Assembly (NCBI GenBank): GCA_021324185.1 | Contig: JAJPJN010000046.1 | Span: 1-64,000, forward strand | DNA: 64,000 nucleotides | Direction of reading: 5' to 3' | Source of the DNA: Terriglobia bacterium | GTDB lineage: Bacteria > Acidobacteriota > Terriglobia > Bryobacterales > Bryobacteraceae | In this document: positions 35,659 through 43,913 of the stretch, piece by piece | Position numbering within the stretch: position 1 is the stretch's first letter | How the letters are laid out: every line of letters begins with the position of its first letter | Program-made: the position numbers and the translations under genes | The notes under the pieces: model-generated | The model's input: the letters and a program-made list of their open reading frames with translations, nothing else | Told to the model about the DNA's origin: nothing | Database searches by the model: none

Positions 35659-37902
35659 GTGAAGCTGTTGTACGCCCTGTGCTTCACACTTCAGCTCGGG
35701 TGGTTCTGCATGGCTGCCGGGCAGCAGCCTACCGCAGCCGGAACTAGCGACGCCTTGTCGCAGATGTCGCCCGATCCAAAACAGACATTCCGGGTGCGTG
35801 ACGTCGAGTTCTTCCGCGGCGATATCAAGATTTATCTCACCGAAGGCGTTCTATCGTTTCTCACTCCGATTGAGGGAAAGACAGTGGGCGCCGTTTGGAC
35901 CACTGAAGGGGTGGAAGCCGGGGATTCGGAAATTATCGTGCTGCCGCCGCAGCGAAACGAACGGGCGTCGCTGGCAGCATTTACGAAGACTCCGAACCTG
36001 GATGAACACTTCGCCTCCGCGCTGTTCCTGTTCACTGACGAGACCGCGCAGGAGTTAACCGCAGCCATCCAGCAGAGGCCGGTTCACATTGCCGCTGATA
36101 TTGCCCCGCAGATGACGGCGGCAGTGCATACGGTGCTGCAGCAAATCGGCGCTGACATGCGCAGCCAACTGGTGGCAGGCCTGTTGGATAGCCATAGCCC
36201 CGAACAGGGGATCTTTTACGCTTTTATCGGCGGGCGAACACTCGGCGCGTTTGATGTTCTATACACGCCCTCGGAATTTGAACAAGTCACCATCGGCCGT
36301 GGCGGACGCCTCACGCCGGGAGGATCGGTATTCGAGCTTTGGACGTCGTTTCGCTCGCGGGGGGCCGCCCCGTACAAACCGCCGGATCCTGCCATTTCGG
36401 ACTATCGGATTAAAGCGGAAATCGGCACCGATCTGAACCTGTCGGCTGACGCAGCATTCAAGTGGCGCGCCACTGCCGCGAACGGGCGAGTAATCCCGCT
36501 GTCGATCGCTGAACAGATCAAAATCGATTCGGCCCAGGTGGACGGCCGTCCAGCGGAGGTCTTTCAGCTTTCTACGGGGCAATCGATCCCGCTGGACAGG
36601 GCGGCGCGGTTTTATTTAATCACCGAAGCCCCATTAGCCGCCGGAAGCGTACACGAAATCGGCGTGCGCTATCAGGGCTCAGTCATTCATCGAACGGAAG
36701 CGGGTAGCTACTTTGTGGACGACCGGAATGCCTGGTATCCGTTTGTGAATCCGACGCTGGCCCGCTTTGACCTGACTTTCATTTGTCCGGAAAATCTGCG
36801 CCTCGTCTCGAGCGGCGAACTGATCTCCGATGATTTGCGTGACGGCAACCGGATTGTCCATCGGGCGACGCGCGTGCCGGAGTCGCTGGCCGGTTTCAAT
36901 CTGGGGGACTATGCCGTGACAGTCGAAGATCACGGCCCGTACCGGGTTGAATGCTACTCGAATCGAGCATCCGAGCCAGGGATTAAAGGCATCGCGGAGG
37001 AGATGAATGCGTTGCTGGATTTTTATACCAGCCGTTGGATACAACTTCCGATTCATAGCATTGCGGTGTCGCCGATTCCCGCCTCGTTCGGCCAAGGTTT
37101 CCCGGGGCTCATTTATCTCTCCAGCGTTTCGTACACGCGCACGGAGGACCGGCCTGCGAGCCTCCGGTCGCCTGAATTTGACCGGTTTTTTTCCGATCTT
37201 CTGTTGCCGCATGAAGTAGCGCATCAGTGGTGGGGCAATATTGTCACAACCGCCGAATACCGCTCAGCCTGGATTACGGAGGCGCTGGCGAACTACTCGG
37301 CTTTGCAATACATGGAAACCCGCCACGGGCAGGTAGAGACAGATTCGTTGCTGGACGGCTACCGCAGCGACTTGCTCGAGGACCACGGGGGTAAGGACGT
37401 GGAATCGTATGGGCCGCTGGAATTCGGAATCCGGCTGATGGATTCAGCGGGCCCCAGCGTATGGCATTCCATCGTCTACGAAAAAGGCACATGGGTGATG
37501 CAGATGCTGCGGAAGCGGCTGGGCGACGACGGCTTTTTGAAACTCGAATTGCGCCTGCTTCATGATTTTGCCGGCCGGCCGCTGACAAATGAAGATTTCC
37601 GCAAAGCAGCCGCGGAGTATGTGCCTGCGGGCCAGCCGGATAAAACTCTCTCGTCTTTCTTTGATACCTGGGTCTACGGGACGGGTATACCGAGACTGGA
37701 AATAAAGAGTAATGAAGTTAACGTTTCCGGGGTGGACGACGACTTCACAGCCGATGTGCCGCTGCACTGCCACTCGCAGGGTTCCGCCGACCGCGTCCGC
37801 TGGGTTCGGGCCAGCTCAGGGGTAAATTCGCTGGAACTCCCGGCCGGAATGGTCTGCGAGCTTCCGCCGCCCGACGAATTTCTTTATCAGCCGGCGCGGT
37901 AA
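35659..37902 (+). CDS. Secreted M1-family metallopeptidase
   Basis: A 747-residue exported protein from GTG 35659 (leader LYALCFTLQLGWFCMAAGQ). The first 400 residues are a long strand-rich region. The gluzincin motif HEVAHQWWGN lies near residue 517 and the third ligand in WITEALANYSALQYME near 540. No GAMEN sequence is visible; the equivalent site reads FGQGFPGLIYLSS, so it belongs to the M1 branch that includes Tricorn-interacting-factor-like or LTA4-hydrolase-like peptidases rather than classical aminopeptidase N. It differs clearly from the M1 enzyme at 13721. It starts four bases after the pilin gene. Confidence 0.9.
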   Translation: MKLLYALCFTLQLGWFCMAAGQQPTAAGTSDALSQMSPDPKQTFRVRDVEFFRGDIKIYLTEGVLSFLTPIEGKTVGAVWTTEGVEAGDSEIIVLPPQRNERASLAAFTKTPNLDEHFASALFLFTDETAQELTAAIQQRPVHIAADIAPQMTAAVHTVLQQIGADMRSQLVAGLLDSHSPEQGIFYAFIGGRTLGAFDVLYTPSEFEQVTIGRGGRLTPGGSVFELWTSFRSRGAAPYKPPDPAISDYRIKAEIGTDLNLSADAAFKWRATAANGRVIPLSIAEQIKIDSAQVDGRPAEVFQLSTGQSIPLDRAARFYLITEAPLAAGSVHEIGVRYQGSVIHRTEAGSYFVDDRNAWYPFVNPTLARFDLTFICPENLRLVSSGELISDDLRDGNRIVHRATRVPESLAGFNLGDYAVTVEDHGPYRVECYSNRASEPGIKGIAEEMNALLDFYTSRWIQLPIHSIAVSPIPASFGQGFPGLIYLSSVSYTRTEDRPASLRSPEFDRFFSDLLLPHEVAHQWWGNIVTTAEYRSAWITEALANYSALQYMETRHGQVETDSLLDGYRSDLLEDHGGKDVESYGPLEFGIRLMDSAGPSVWHSIVYEKGTWVMQMLRKRLGDDGFLKLELRLLHDFAGRPLTNEDFRKAAAEYVPAGQPDKTLSSFFDTWVYGTGIPRLEIKSNEVNVSGVDDDFTADVPLHCHSQGSADRVRWVRASSGVNSLELPAGMVCELPPPDEFLYQPAR

Positions 37903-37973
37903 ACCTTAAGCCTGAACCCGCGTCTTTCTAAGCAGATAGCCCACGGCAGCAGCTTGTATTTATGATAGTCGCG

Positions 37974-38576
37974 ATGGCAGACCAACTGGAAATAGGAATC
38001 CACGTTGGCGCGGATCTGCGTGACTTCGGCAGTTGGATGACGTCAGAACAGAGGCGGATCTATCTGCTCTGCCGGAGAATGCTGCAGGACCCGGACGAGG
38101 CGGATTCGGCAACCCAGGATGTCTTCCTGAAAGCGTACCGGGCGCTCAGCAAGGGCGCGGGCGAGGCGAATGTGCTGGATAATCCCGGCAGATGGGTGAC
38201 CCGCATTGCGGTGAATACCTGTCTGGACCGGCTTCGATCGAGAAGCTGGAAGATCTGGCAACGCCGCCCGGCAGTGGAAGACGAAGAGTTTATTCTTCAG
38301 ACCGTTGCCGGTTCCGGACCGGATGCGGAAAGCCGCATTTTCGCGACGCAAATCCAGCAAAGACTGGAAAAGGCGCTGGCTAAGCTATCGGACCGGCAGC
38401 GAGCCGTTTTTTCGCTGCGGCATTATGATTCGATGGCGTTGGAAGAGATTGCCGAGGTGCTGGCACTCGATGTAGGCACCGTGAAAGCTCATCTTTTTCG
38501 CGCCATCGCAAAGCTGAGGGAAGAACTGAAAGACCTTTACAAACCGAGGGAAGGAGAAACCCGGAGGACGACATGA
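37974..38576 (+). CDS. ECF-type sigma-70 family sigma factor
   Basis: About 200 residues from ATG 37974 (an earlier in-frame ATG is at 37962). Region 2 is seen in RRIYLLCRRMLQDPDEADSATQDVFLKAYRAL and region 4 in LAKLSDRQRAVFSLRHYDSMALEEIAEVLALDVGTVKAHLFRAIAKLREEL. Region 3 is absent, as in ECF factors. TATGAT at 37961-37966 lies seven bases before ATG 37974. Its stop overlaps the next gene, an anti-sigma factor, by four bases (ATGA), so it is probably held inactive by that partner. Confidence 0.92.
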   Translation: MADQLEIGIHVGADLRDFGSWMTSEQRRIYLLCRRMLQDPDEADSATQDVFLKAYRALSKGAGEANVLDNPGRWVTRIAVNTCLDRLRSRSWKIWQRRPAVEDEEFILQTVAGSGPDAESRIFATQIQQRLEKALAKLSDRQRAVFSLRHYDSMALEEIAEVLALDVGTVKAHLFRAIAKLREELKDLYKPREGETRRTT

Positions 38577-39028
38577 ACATCGAGTCCAAGCTGTCAGGAC
38601 ATTGGACAGATGAGCAACTGATTGAGCACCTATACGGCATCGGCCCAGAAGGAAACCACGTTGAGGAGTGCGGCGATTGCCGCGAGCGGCTGTCGCGGAT
38701 GGTGGCGGCGCGGCGCGCAATTGAGGCGGAGTGTGCGCCGCTCGAGCAGGTCCCTTTTGATCTGCTGGCTGCGCAGCGCCGCAGCATCTATGCGCGCCTT
38801 GCGCAGCGGCCCGCAGCACGGCTGGGATTGCGGATGCGCCAGTGGGCGGCAGCGGCGGCAATGATCGCACTGCTCGGTGGCGGCGCATTTCTGTATGAGC
38901 AAAACCAGCGCCAGCAGGCTCTACAAAACAAGGTGACAGATGCTCAGTTGGCGCAGGAAGTCAGCGCGATTGCGCAAGCTTCCGAGCCCAACTCCACTGC
39001 GCCTCTGCAAGAATTGTTTGTAGAGTAG
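38573..39028 (+). CDS. Membrane anti-sigma factor with zinc motif
   Basis: A 151-residue protein. The zinc anti-sigma motif His29-x3-Cys33-x2-Cys36 (HVEECGDC) follows a helix (WTDEQLIEHLYG). A single membrane helix lies at about 91-108 (WAAAAAMIALLGGGAFLY). The periplasmic part (109-151) is short and Gln/Ala-rich. It would bind the sigma factor encoded just upstream in the cytoplasm. It overlaps that gene by four bases, and the next gene begins at the base after its stop. Confidence 0.85.
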   Translation: MNIESKLSGHWTDEQLIEHLYGIGPEGNHVEECGDCRERLSRMVAARRAIEAECAPLEQVPFDLLAAQRRSIYARLAQRPAARLGLRMRQWAAAAAMIALLGGGAFLYEQNQRQQALQNKVTDAQLAQEVSAIAQASEPNSTAPLQELFVE

Positions 39029-39466
39029 ATGCCCAAGTCCTTACGCATTTTCGCGCTGCTGCTGGCAACGTGTGTCGTTGTGTTTGCACAGACCAGGGCG
39101 AATTTTCCCTGGTGGAACAGCCCGATAGTTGACGATCCGCAACTGGGCTTGACGCAGGCGCAAAAGCAACGTATCCGGCAGATCGTCCGCAGTTACCGCA
39201 ATCGCCTTCTGGATGCCCGCAATAACGCGAGCAAAGCGGAACTGGATCTGGACGATCTGTTCAATGACCCGGACGCCTCGACGCAAGGAGCGGAAGGCGT
39301 TATCCAGAGAGCCGCCGAAGCGCGCGCGAACGCCAGCCGCGTGTTTCTGGAGATGAGCTTTCAGATCCGCAGTGTCTTAACTCTGGATCAATGGCGCGAG
39401 CTGGTACGGCGTTGGGATGAGGTCAGGAAAAAGAGGCCGCAGGATACGCAGGTTCCTCCGGAGTAG
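39029..39466 (+). CDS. Spy/CpxP/CnrX-like periplasmic protein
   Basis: A 145-residue exported protein (leader FALLLATCVVVFAQ). The mature part is helical with the LTxxQ-type motif twice (LGLTQAQKQRIRQIV and VLTLDQWREL), the hallmark of the Spy/CpxP and CnrX/ZraP folds. These act as periplasmic chaperones or metal and envelope-stress sensors. Being third in a sigma, anti-sigma, Spy-like operon, it may help sense the signal for the sigma factor (inference). It has only the cleavable leader and no metal-ligand cluster. Confidence 0.75.
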   Translation: MPKSLRIFALLLATCVVVFAQTRANFPWWNSPIVDDPQLGLTQAQKQRIRQIVRSYRNRLLDARNNASKAELDLDDLFNDPDASTQGAEGVIQRAAEARANASRVFLEMSFQIRSVLTLDQWRELVRRWDEVRKKRPQDTQVPPE

Positions 39467-41987: not shown

Positions 41988-43913
41988 CTACGCCGTCGCT
42001 TCAATCTGCTCAGTTAGCTGTTCCCACTCGCTCATTGCGGCGGCCAGTTCAGCGCGTTGCGATTCGAGCAGATTCGATAAGCGCGCCGCCTCTGCAGCTC
42101 CAACGAATTCGGAGAGCGCCAGCTCCGCCTGCTGAATCTCGCTCTCAAGCGCAGCGATGCGCTCTTCCAATTCCTTCGCCCGATCCTGCATCTGTTTCAG
42201 CTTGATGGGATTGATGCGCTTGGCTGGCGGCGTTTTCGTAGTAATTGGAATGGGCTCGGCGGGCGGCACACCAATTAATACGTCGTCCAATGTCGGAGGC
42301 TGTTCGGCGCGGCCTGCTTTGCGCCAGAGATAATCGTCGTAATTGCCGGGGTAGACGGTCACGTTGCCGCCGGCGATTTCGAAGACTCGCGTCGCCAGAT
42401 GCTCGATGAAATAGCGGTCGTGAGAAACGAACACAATTGTGCCGGTGAACTTCTCAAGCGCTTCGAGCAAAACGTCTTTCGCGCGGATGTCGAGGTGATT
42501 CGTCGGCTCATCCAGCAGCAAAAAGTTCGACGGGTGCAGCAGCATGCGCGCCAGCGCATACCGATTGCGCTCGCCGCCCGAGAGAACGCCAATACGCTTG
42601 AACACGTCGTCTTCGCTGAATAGGAAACAGCCCAACAGATTGCGCAGTTCGGTTTCAGTTGTACGCGGCGCGGCGGAACTTAAATCGTCCAGCACGCGCG
42701 CATTCACATCGAGCTCTTTATATTGATCCTGCGCGAAGTAATCCGGCTCGACATTGTGTCCCAATGTGTATTCACCGCTGCTGAGCGGCTCGGTACCGGC
42801 AAGCAGTTTGATGAGAGTCGATTTGCCCGCTCCGTTGACGCCGACCAGCGCGATGCGATCGCCGCGTTCGATCGTAAAATTCACGTTACTGAAGACAAGC
42901 TTTTCGCCATAGCTTTTGGCCACATCTTTGAATTGGGCGACTACGCGGCCGCTCGGCTTGGGCTGCGGAAACGAGAAATGAATTGTCTTTTCTTCGGGCG
43001 GCAATTCGATACGCTCGATCTTTTCCAGTTCTTTGATCCGGCTTTGTACCTGCTTTGCTTTAGTCGCCTGATAGCGAAAGCGATTGATAAAGGCCTCGAG
43101 CTGCTGAATTTTGTCCTGCTGGTTTTTGTAAGCCGCCTCGAGCGCCGCCAGCCGCTCGGCTTTTTGCTGCCGGTATTTTTCGTACCCGCCGGTGTAGAAA
43201 TGAACTTTTTTGTTCCAGATCTCAACAATCTTTTTGACGGTGACATCCAGAAAGTAGCGGTCATGCGAGATCAGCACGTAGGCGTATTCATAGCCAGCCA
43301 GGTACTCTTCCAGCCAATTGCGCGCTTCGAGATCGAGGTGGTTGGTCGGCTCATCGAGCAGCAGAAGATTCGGCTTTTGCAGGAGCAGCTTCGCCAAAGC
43401 GAGACGCATCTGCCAGCCACCGGAGAATTCCTCTGTTTGCCGTGTCCAGGTATCTCTGGTAAATCCGAGACCGGCCAGCACGGCTCCCGCCTGGGCCTCG
43501 ATGGTATAGCCATCGCGCGCGCGGAATTCTGCATCGACGCGCTCGAAGCGTTCGGCGACCGAGCGGTATTCAGCGCCGGCCGGATCGAGTTCGCTCATTC
43601 TGGCGGTTAACGATTCGAGTTCCGACTCCAGATCCTGAACGTCTGCGAAGACGCTCATGCATTCGGCGAAAACCGTGCGCCCGCTGAGCTCCAGGCCATC
43701 CTGCGGAAGATAGCCGGTTCGTATTCCTTTGGTTGCGGAAAGTGAACCGTAATCAAGCTGCTCGATTCCGGCAAGCACTTTGAGCAGCGTCGATTTGCCG
43801 CTTCCATTTGCGCCCACTAAGCCGGTGCGTTCTTTGGGAGTGACGAGCCAATCCAAGCCGTCAAACAAAAGCTTGGGGCCGAAGCGCTTACCGGCTCCTG
43901 TGAGTTGCAGCAT
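41988..43913 (-). CDS. ABC-F family ATPase (Uup-like)
   Basis: A 641-residue protein with two nucleotide-binding domains and no membrane segment. Walker A motifs are GANGSGKST and GVNGAGKST, and the signatures FSGGWQMRLALAKLLL and LSGGERNRYALARMLL are followed by LLLDEPTNHLD twice. A charged linker (PtIM-like, 235-300) lies between them, and a C-terminal coiled coil covers about 570-640 as in Uup. ABC-F proteins act on the ribosome or, for Uup, in genome stability. It converges on the methyltransferase gene with 17 bases between stops, and starts 16 bases after the accD stop. Confidence 0.94.
   Translation of the reverse strand: MLQLTGAGKRFGPKLLFDGLDWLVTPKERTGLVGANGSGKSTLLKVLAGIEQLDYGSLSATKGIRTGYLPQDGLELSGRTVFAECMSVFADVQDLESELESLTARMSELDPAGAEYRSVAERFERVDAEFRARDGYTIEAQAGAVLAGLGFTRDTWTRQTEEFSGGWQMRLALAKLLLQKPNLLLLDEPTNHLDLEARNWLEEYLAGYEYAYVLISHDRYFLDVTVKKIVEIWNKKVHFYTGGYEKYRQQKAERLAALEAAYKNQQDKIQQLEAFINRFRYQATKAKQVQSRIKELEKIERIELPPEEKTIHFSFPQPKPSGRVVAQFKDVAKSYGEKLVFSNVNFTIERGDRIALVGVNGAGKSTLIKLLAGTEPLSSGEYTLGHNVEPDYFAQDQYKELDVNARVLDDLSSAAPRTTETELRNLLGCFLFSEDDVFKRIGVLSGGERNRYALARMLLHPSNFLLLDEPTNHLDIRAKDVLLEALEKFTGTIVFVSHDRYFIEHLATRVFEIAGGNVTVYPGNYDDYLWRKAGRAEQPPTLDDVLIGVPPAEPIPITTKTPPAKRINPIKLKQMQDRAKELEERIAALESEIQQAELALSEFVGAAEAARLSNLLESQRAELAAAMSEWEQLTEQIEATA

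What the first reader, a model, noticed from the sequence alone, without database searches (positions are those of the whole stretch)
37974..39466. Sigma / zinc anti-sigma / Spy-like triad resembling CnrYXH logic
Three genes are tightly packed (four-base overlap, then zero gap). The third is a Spy/CnrX-type periplasmic helical protein, like the sensor in the Cupriavidus cobalt-nickel CnrYXH system, but without evident metal ligands and with a separate ZAS anti-sigma. It may be an envelope-stress switch of its own type.
Basis: partly seen in the sequence, partly recalled or inferred. Interest (0 to 1): 0.55.

Follow-up and report, generated by a model that had tools for sequence, protein, structure and literature searches.

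The report
Sigma switch with Spy-like periplasmic partner
This soil bacterium carries a three-gene stress switch (a transcription factor, its membrane-bound inhibitor and a small Spy-like protein outside the inner membrane) that is inherited as a unit and whose inhibitor and Spy-like protein seem to have evolved in step, so the chaperone-like protein probably helps hold the switch off; similar gene trios are known, but this one lacks the metal-sensing residues of its best-known cousin.

Summary
An ECF sigma factor (37962/37974-38576), a single-TM anti-sigma with HxxxCxxC (38573-39028) and a secreted Spy/CnrX-fold protein (39029-39466) overlap by 4 nt and abut at 0 nt. The unit is real: in 150 family genomes the sigma and the Spy-like gene occur in the same 50. 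Of 89 of the best-scoring phylum loci, 60 have an ECF sigma within 1.6 kb. A promoter-like pair GTAA[ACT]C/CGT[CT] precedes the sigma in 41 of 52 loci (shuffles: at most 3), implying autoregulation. The mature protein has no His or Cys, so CnrX-type metal sensing is unlikely. New here: the anti-sigma's short periplasmic tail holds its only invariant residue (F149), and tail and Spy-like protein co-vary beyond shared ancestry in two locus sets, while the cytoplasmic domain hardly does; the signal fades when few distant loci are kept. Best reading: a metal-free, chaperone-titrated brake docked on that tail. Binding, sign and signal are inferred. Closest known: Phocaeicola cirYZ-spy (2026), Acinetobacter SigAb-AabAB, CnrYXH.

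The parts
37899..37924 (+). Predicted ECF promoter GTAAACC-N15-CGTC; overlaps the stop codon of the upstream M1-type peptidase gene
   Evidence: GTAA[ACT]C-N15-18-CGT[CT] lies within 300 nt upstream (or the first 80 nt) of the sigma ORF in 41 of 52 group-A loci, window included; 200 mononucleotide shuffles: mean 0.36, max 3 (looser pattern 41 of 52, mean 2.66, max 7). Pattern found and tested on the same loci; no transcript data.
37962..38576 (+). ECF sigma factor (regions 2 and 4); alternative in-frame start 37974
38573..39028 (+). Anti-sigma factor: cytoplasmic ZAS-type domain, one TM, short periplasmic tail
38657..38680 (+). HxxxCxxC zinc motif (H29, C33, C36)
   Evidence: Intact in 43 of 47 family members
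38840..38896 (+). Transmembrane helix of the anti-sigma (about residues 90-108)
   Evidence: Hydropathy, read from the sequence; no dedicated predictor was run
38939..39019 (+). Periplasmic tail motif D123...EP139...P144...L148-F149, predicted docking site
   Evidence: F149 invariant in 47 of 47; D123, P139, P144, L148 at 90% or more; tail helix in the model, pLDDT about 78
39029..39466 (+). Secreted Spy/CnrX-fold protein (PF13801)
39029..39088 (+). Signal peptide of the Spy-like protein, cleavage near A20-Q21
   Evidence: Read from the sequence; A20 and Q21 at 90% or more in 47 sequences; no predictor was run
39104..39115 (+). FPWW element at the N-terminus of the mature protein
   Evidence: W29 invariant, W28 at 90% or more in 47 sequences

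Best explanation
An autoregulated envelope-stress switch. The anti-sigma holds the ECF sigma at the inner membrane through its cytoplasmic ZAS-type domain, where zinc is probably structural. In the periplasm the secreted Spy-like protein docks on the anti-sigma's short acidic tail (D...EP...P...LF) and stabilises the 'off' state. When unfolded or damaged envelope proteins occupy the Spy-like protein, the tail is left free, the anti-sigma is inactivated (probably by proteolysis or a conformational change), and the sigma transcribes its own operon. That makes more Spy-like chaperone, which clears clients and re-caps the tail, closing a negative feedback loop. Supported by computation: gene unit, fold, shared promoter-like motif, co-inheritance, tail conservation, tail/Spy-like co-variation. 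Inferred: physical binding, the sign (brake), the signal (unfolded protein) and the release step.
For: Sigma and third gene occur in the same 50 of 150 genomes; two same-genus genomes (G050, G101) lack both. Promoter-like motif before the sigma in 41 of 52 loci against at most 3 in shuffles. Fold: the first 21 Foldseek rows of one model and the first 16 of the other are CnrX, Spy or CpxP; the family profile matches E. coli Spy at 1.3e-10. Tail: five of the 13 anti-sigma positions at 90% or more are in the tail, with the only invariant one, F149. Co-variation (partial rank correlation given sigma and cytoplasmic-domain distances): group A, 52 loci, tail-P3 0.36, permutation p 0.001, against cytoplasmic domain-P3 0.006 and TM-P3 0.10; 58 other loci, 0.42, p 0.001, against 0.012. 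Tail net charge averages -4.4. Precedent: AlphaFold-multimer wraps AabB round the periplasmic end of AabA, and AabB expressed alone lowers sigma activity in an E. coli reporter (PMC12153292, passages).
Against: No binding data; the fold tool returned no coordinates or PAE for the tail-plus-partner model (pTM 0.58), so docking could not be judged. Averaged over columns the tail is no more conserved than the cytoplasmic domain (mean top-residue frequency 0.46 against 0.47; motif part 0.53). Co-variation weakens on thinning: group A motif-only p 0.062 at 22 loci and 0.084 at 9, whole tail p 0.059 at 9; second set p 0.067 at 18 loci, where the cytoplasmic control reaches 0.155 (p 0.10) against 0.216 for the tail; group B alone (13 loci) 0.336, p 0.037, control 0.177. 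Tail and Spy-like gene are DNA neighbours, so local co-inheritance is not excluded. In the published cirYZ-spy case Spy is read as an output. The promoter motif is near chance elsewhere in the own genome (24 hits against 18 control), so no wider regulon is shown. 26 of 89 phylum loci lack a sigma within 1.6 kb, and in one group-B locus (L057) the sigma adjoins the Spy-like gene with no room for an anti-sigma.
Confidence: 0.5

Rival explanations
1. Output only: the Spy-like protein is a periplasmic chaperone made on demand by the operon and never touches the anti-sigma, whose own tail senses stress or is cut by proteases.
For: This is how the P. vulgatus cirYZ-spy operon is interpreted; co-transcription from the promoter-like motif suffices for it; Spy homology at E 1.3e-10.
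Against: Tail/Spy-like co-variation with little or none for the cytoplasmic domain, in two locus sets; conserved tail positions that would otherwise need another partner.
Confidence: 0.27
2. Client-loaded activator: the Spy-like protein binds the tail only when loaded with clients or modified, and that contact switches the sigma on.
For: Fits the same co-variation data, which do not give the sign; CnrX activates on binding its ligand (PMC7689651, passages).
Against: Nothing direct; CpxP (recalled) and AabB act as negative regulators.
Confidence: 0.13
3. Metal sensor of the CnrX kind.
For: Same fold; Pfam family named Metal_resist; Met109 is conserved in 83% of the family.
Against: Mature P0003 has 0 His, 0 Cys and 1 Met; the family averages 0.77 His and 0 Cys in the core. 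In the hhalign alignment CnrX H119 falls on M109 and M123 on I113 (gapless, but probability only 4.4%). No efflux genes seen beside the triad at 34-44 kb (read by eye).
Confidence: 0.05
4. Zinc or redox sensor: the HxxxCxxC domain senses thiol stress in the cytoplasm and the periplasmic partner is incidental.
For: Motif intact in 43 of 47; best PDB match of the family is ChrR, E 0.025.
Against: Lost in 4 of 47 members that keep F149 (47 of 47); published analysis finds Zn and non-Zn members mixed within groups and suggests a structural role there (PMC7406223, passages).
Confidence: 0.05

Closest known systems
Phocaeicola vulgatus cirY/cirZ/spy operon and its second sigma/anti-sigma/spy region (PMC13114119, passages read)
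   Same: Gene order sigma, anti-sigma, spy; co-transcribed; [quoted passage not shown] two distinct sigma/anti-sigma/spy sets, as with groups A and B here.
   Different: Bacteroidales; Spy read as output only; no anti-sigma tail motif in the passages read; two further genes (hydrolase; glucosaminidase/LysM) in the regulon. Sequences were not compared here.
Acinetobacter SigAb-AabA-AabB (PMC12153292, passages read)
   Same: ECF sigma, small TM anti-sigma, periplasmic third protein modelled round the anti-sigma's periplasmic end; anti-sigma activity.
   Different: AabA is 107 aa and its modelled sigma contact resembles CnrY; linked to copper stress. Sequences were not compared here.
CnrYXH/NccYXH, Cupriavidus metallidurans (pMOL28 genes fetched; PMC7689651 passages)
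   Same: Three-part logic; CnrX has the fold of the third protein; overlapping genes.
   Different: Order Y-X-H; CnrY is 95 aa, class II, without HxxxCxxC (class from PMC7406223); [quoted passage not shown] next to RND efflux genes.
E. coli Spy and CpxP
   Same: Spy profile match E 1.3e-10 over profile positions 30-136; LTxxQ motifs; CpxP also a regulator docked on a membrane sensor (recalled).
   Different: Controlled by two-component systems (stated for spy in PMC13114119), no sigma/anti-sigma pair beside them (recalled). Whether Spy has a counterpart of FPWW was not tested; the printed alignment starts after it.
Azospirillum RpoE8 / hypothetical / periplasmic heavy metal sensor operon (PMC12826043, passages read)
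   Same: Same three-gene layout.
   Different: Only listed as up-regulated when RpoE6 is overexpressed; not characterised.

Membership tests
CnrYXH-type system | Metal-liganding residues (H42, H46, E63, H119 recalled; M123 in PMC7689651) in the periplasmic protein | tested here: not met
   0 His, 0 Cys, 1 Met in mature P0003; H119 aligns to M109 and M123 to I113; H42, H46 and E63 lie outside the aligned part
CnrYXH-type system | Class II (CnrY-like) anti-sigma | tested here: not met
   hhalign of the anti-sigma family against CnrY: probability 0.3%; HxxxCxxC present in 43 of 47
CnrYXH-type system | Periplasmic protein of CnrX fold | tested here: met
   Foldseek probability 1.00 for the best CnrX rows, though E 0.04-0.07 and none at 0.001 or below; VIA Z 10.7 over 108 residues, while unrelated helical chains reach 10.1
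CnrYXH-type system | Adjacent RND metal efflux genes | tested here: not met
   ORFs at 34-44 kb: M1-type peptidase upstream, AraC-type regulator downstream on the other strand, no efflux genes seen (names by eye)
CnrYXH-type system | N-terminal membrane anchor on the sensor | tested here: inconclusive
   N-terminal hydrophobic stretch with a conserved A-Q junction looks cleavable; no signal-peptide predictor was available
Spy/CpxP/ZraP/CnrX fold superfamily | LTxxQ-type motifs and the helical hairpin fold | tested here: met
   LTQAQ and LTLDQ in P0003; PF13801 in 47 of 47 and PF07813 in 36 of 47 members at E 0.01; Spy E 1.3e-10; models and fold search
Spy/CpxP/ZraP/CnrX fold superfamily | Chaperone activity | not testable with these tools
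   Needs a bench assay
Class I ZAS anti-sigma factor (ASDI) | Hx3Cx2C signature, as used in PMC7406223 | tested here: met
   43 of 47 members, the window's included
Class I ZAS anti-sigma factor (ASDI) | Recognised by a curated profile | tested here: inconclusive
   P0002: no Pfam family above cut-off, NF052375 E 7e-5 below cut-off; zf-HC2 weakly in 5 of 47 members; ChrR E 0.025
ECF sigma factor | Regions 2 and 4 | tested here: met
   PF04542, PF08281, TIGR02937 above cut-off
cirYZ-spy type operon | Sigma, anti-sigma, spy in this order | tested here: met
   Gene order and overlaps
cirYZ-spy type operon | Autoregulation by the sigma | tested here: inconclusive
   Promoter-like motif upstream of the sigma in 41 of 52 loci; no expression data
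cirYZ-spy type operon | Homology of the anti-sigma with CirZ | not tested
   CirZ sequence was not fetched

The most novel reading that the evidence does not exclude
A phylum-wide class of chaperone-titrated ECF switches: a metal-free Spy-like chaperone is itself the sensor, capping a short conserved peptide at the end of a ZAS anti-sigma, so the cell reads envelope damage as loss of free chaperone and the same operon supplies the cure. Tail and chaperone have diversified together into paralogous, possibly mutually insulated pairs (groups A and B and further clades).
Probability: 0.4. Interest if true: 0.65.

Novelty: new variant of a known kind. Interest (0 to 1): 0.42.

Why it matters
If right, it gives a simple logic for envelope stress sensing in Acidobacteriota, where chaperone occupancy is the signal, and names residues (tail D123, P139, P144, L148, F149; partner FPWW and LTxxQ) that make it testable by peptide binding. 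It would also recast the recently described sigma/anti-sigma/spy operon, where Spy is taken as output, and warn that 'periplasmic heavy metal sensor' (PF13801) labels beside ECF sigmas may be wrong about metal.

Tried and rejected
Wider regulon: own-genome search for the promoter motif gave 24 hits against 18 in the reversed control. By eye only two other hits had a clean downstream gene (an OPT-type transporter, L183, and a secreted protein, L175). The upstream regions of the OPT relatives scanned carry no such motif (0 of 28 loci, triad-bearing or not, some cut short by contig ends), so that lead was dropped. L175 was not followed.

Docking by fold: a single-chain tail-plus-partner model was made, but no coordinates or PAE are returned, so nothing is claimed about the interface; only the tail helix and the partner fold are used. 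Three earlier alignments for it were not used because the aligner put pieces in the wrong columns.

Fold lists: a SipB fragment (3tul) stands at rank 22 and rank 17 among the CnrX/Spy/CpxP rows; ZraP and NccX come lower in Foldseek; nothing rests on their rank.

Metal sensing and zinc sensing were considered and set low (see rivals).

Co-variation limits: group A is 52 loci including the window (L028 is not in it, its sigma being off the contig; G058 gives two). The second set is the 58 loci of L057-L077 and L083-L167 that had a sigma, an HxxxCxxC anti-sigma and a tail of 20 or more residues; the rest were dropped. The 89 phylum loci are L079-L167, chosen from the best-scoring matches, not at random; L079 is the same place as L056. 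The sigma distance there is end to end. Genome counts were typed from the listings; the cut between group A and B was set after seeing the gap between 4.5e-15 and 4e-12. G012 (sigma cut at a contig end, E 9e-33) and G035 (E 3e-26) were not counted as carrying this sigma. G127 has sigma and partner at the ends of two contigs; in G016 the partner is cut by a contig end and matches at 1.4e-11, and it was counted as present (49 without it).

Literature: among the papers listed by the searches (for the broad ones only the top 10-15 rows were seen) none was about this triad in Acidobacteriota or a conserved anti-sigma tail for Spy-like proteins; the large ECF reclassification paper was not held.

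Full report
What is there. Three genes on the + strand: an ECF sigma factor (37962 or 37974 to 38576), an anti-sigma (38573-39028) and a small secreted helical protein (39029-39466). The sigma has regions 2 and 4; the third protein is PF13801 above cut-off. The anti-sigma has HxxxCxxC, one transmembrane stretch and a periplasmic tail of about 44 residues; it reaches no Pfam cut-off, and ChrR (E 0.025) and RsiW (E 0.36) are the nearest solved relatives by profile. The upstream gene looks like an M1-type peptidase, the downstream neighbour like an AraC-type regulator on the other strand (names are my reading of the sequences).

The third protein. Two models, one of the tail plus the protein (mean pLDDT 82.7) and one of the protein alone (88.3), give a long helical hairpin. 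Foldseek puts CnrX, Spy and CpxP in the first 21 rows for one model and CnrX and Spy in the first 16 for the other, at probabilities near 1.00 but E-values of 0.04 and up, none at 0.001 or below; VIA-align gives CnrX Z 10.7 over 108 residues, with unrelated helical proteins at 10.1 just below. By sequence the family profile matches E. coli Spy at 1.3e-10; CnrX is not among its 13 matches. The mature protein has no His, no Cys and one Met; the family averages 0.77 His in the core. Aligned with CnrX from pMOL28, H119 falls on Met109 and the signalling Met123 on Ile113; the alignment is gapless but its probability is only 4.4%.

A unit, not a neighbourhood accident. In a sample of 150 genomes of the family the sigma (E<1e-50) and the group-A Spy-like gene occur in the same 50 genomes; in G127 they lie at the ends of two contigs and in G016 the Spy-like gene is cut by a contig end. 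Two other genomes of the same genus lack both. In 51 relatives the third gene starts -4 to +9 nt from the anti-sigma stop. A second, more distant lineage (group B) repeats the layout: of 20 fetched loci outside the own genome, 18 have a sigma upstream and the other two (L069, L077) are cut by contig ends; in one of the 18 (L057) there is no room for an anti-sigma. Across the phylum 228 of 396 genomes hold a relative of the third gene at E 1e-6; of 89 of the best-scoring loci, 60 have an ECF sigma within 1.6 kb, 3 are cut by contig ends and 26 have none that close, seven of these with the sigma about 2.2-2.5 kb away.

Autoregulation. 41 of 52 group-A loci carry GTAA[ACT]C and CGT[CT] boxes 15-18 nt apart upstream of the sigma, against a shuffle mean of 0.36 and maximum of 3 in 200; the pattern was found on the same loci. 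In the window it is at 37899-37924. This is the usual shape of an ECF promoter (recalled). Elsewhere in the genome the motif is near chance, and the best other candidate is not conserved; the regulon may be little more than the operon.

Does the third protein touch the switch? Of 13 anti-sigma positions at 90% or more in 47 members, five are in the tail, including the only invariant one, F149; averaged over columns, though, the tail is only as conserved as the cytoplasmic domain (0.46 against 0.47). HxxxCxxC is lost in 4 of 47 that keep F149. Distances between tails follow distances between Spy-like proteins after sigma and cytoplasmic-domain distances are removed: partial rank correlation 0.36, permutation p 0.001, 52 loci; the cytoplasmic domain of the same protein gives 0.006 and the TM segment 0.10. 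A separate set of 58 loci outside group A gives 0.42 (p 0.001) against 0.012. Thinning by distance keeps the whole-tail signal at p 0.001-0.004 down to 22 loci in group A and 34 in the second set; with 9 and 18 loci it falls to p 0.059 and 0.067, the motif-only version is at p 0.062 already with 22, and in the thinned second set the cytoplasmic control rises to 0.09-0.16 (p 0.10-0.13). Local co-inheritance of adjacent DNA is a remaining confound.

Mechanism. I think the Spy-like protein caps the tail and keeps the switch off, is drawn away by unfolded envelope proteins, and is replenished by the operon it controls (0.5). The output-only reading (0.27) is the one given in the Phocaeicola study (PMC13114119, passages). 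The sign of the action, the signal and the release step are inferences.

Relation to the known. The layout is in print for Phocaeicola vulgatus (two sets), and similar trios for Acinetobacter (PMC12153292) and Azospirillum (PMC12826043); CnrYXH shares the fold and the logic but not the order, the anti-sigma class, the ligands or the efflux genes. The triad is therefore a variant of a known kind, with a ZAS anti-sigma and a partner without the known metal ligands. The element I did not find in the papers listed is the conserved, co-varying tail. Papers were seen only as listings and as passages found by search terms; none was read whole.

Noticed in passing
window 35659-37902: An M1-type aminopeptidase gene lies directly upstream of the triad, and relatives of it were found beside the triad in L005, L035, L036 and L049, with a weaker match in L028 (5 of the 52 loci L005-L056 searched, many with short flanks); the predicted sigma promoter overlaps its stop codon.
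   Followed up: partly
G000:C98:5719-6048 (L064): The own genome holds a group-B Spy-like gene with no sigma gene found in the 8 kb fetched, an orphan of the second lineage.
   Followed up: partly
L130, L135, L143, L146, L148, L153, L157, L158, L161, L163: In some other clades a gene that looks like IspH (name recalled from the sequence) sits before the Spy-like gene, in several cases with sigma and anti-sigma further upstream.
   Followed up: no
window 37962-37976: The stretch from one in-frame ATG of the sigma to the next is conserved in the closest relatives (about TATGATxGGCGxxATGGC), so the true start is uncertain and the stretch may matter for translation.
   Followed up: no
L253:3311-3595 (CnrY, pMOL28): CnrY also ends in a short tail with a Pro-hydrophobic end (SPFGLL), loosely like the P-x-x-x-LF end of the tail described here; a lead only.
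   Followed up: no
window 41988-43913: An ABC-F type ATPase gene lies downstream on the other strand, and its relatives lie directly after the triad in L034, L036 and L037.
   Followed up: no
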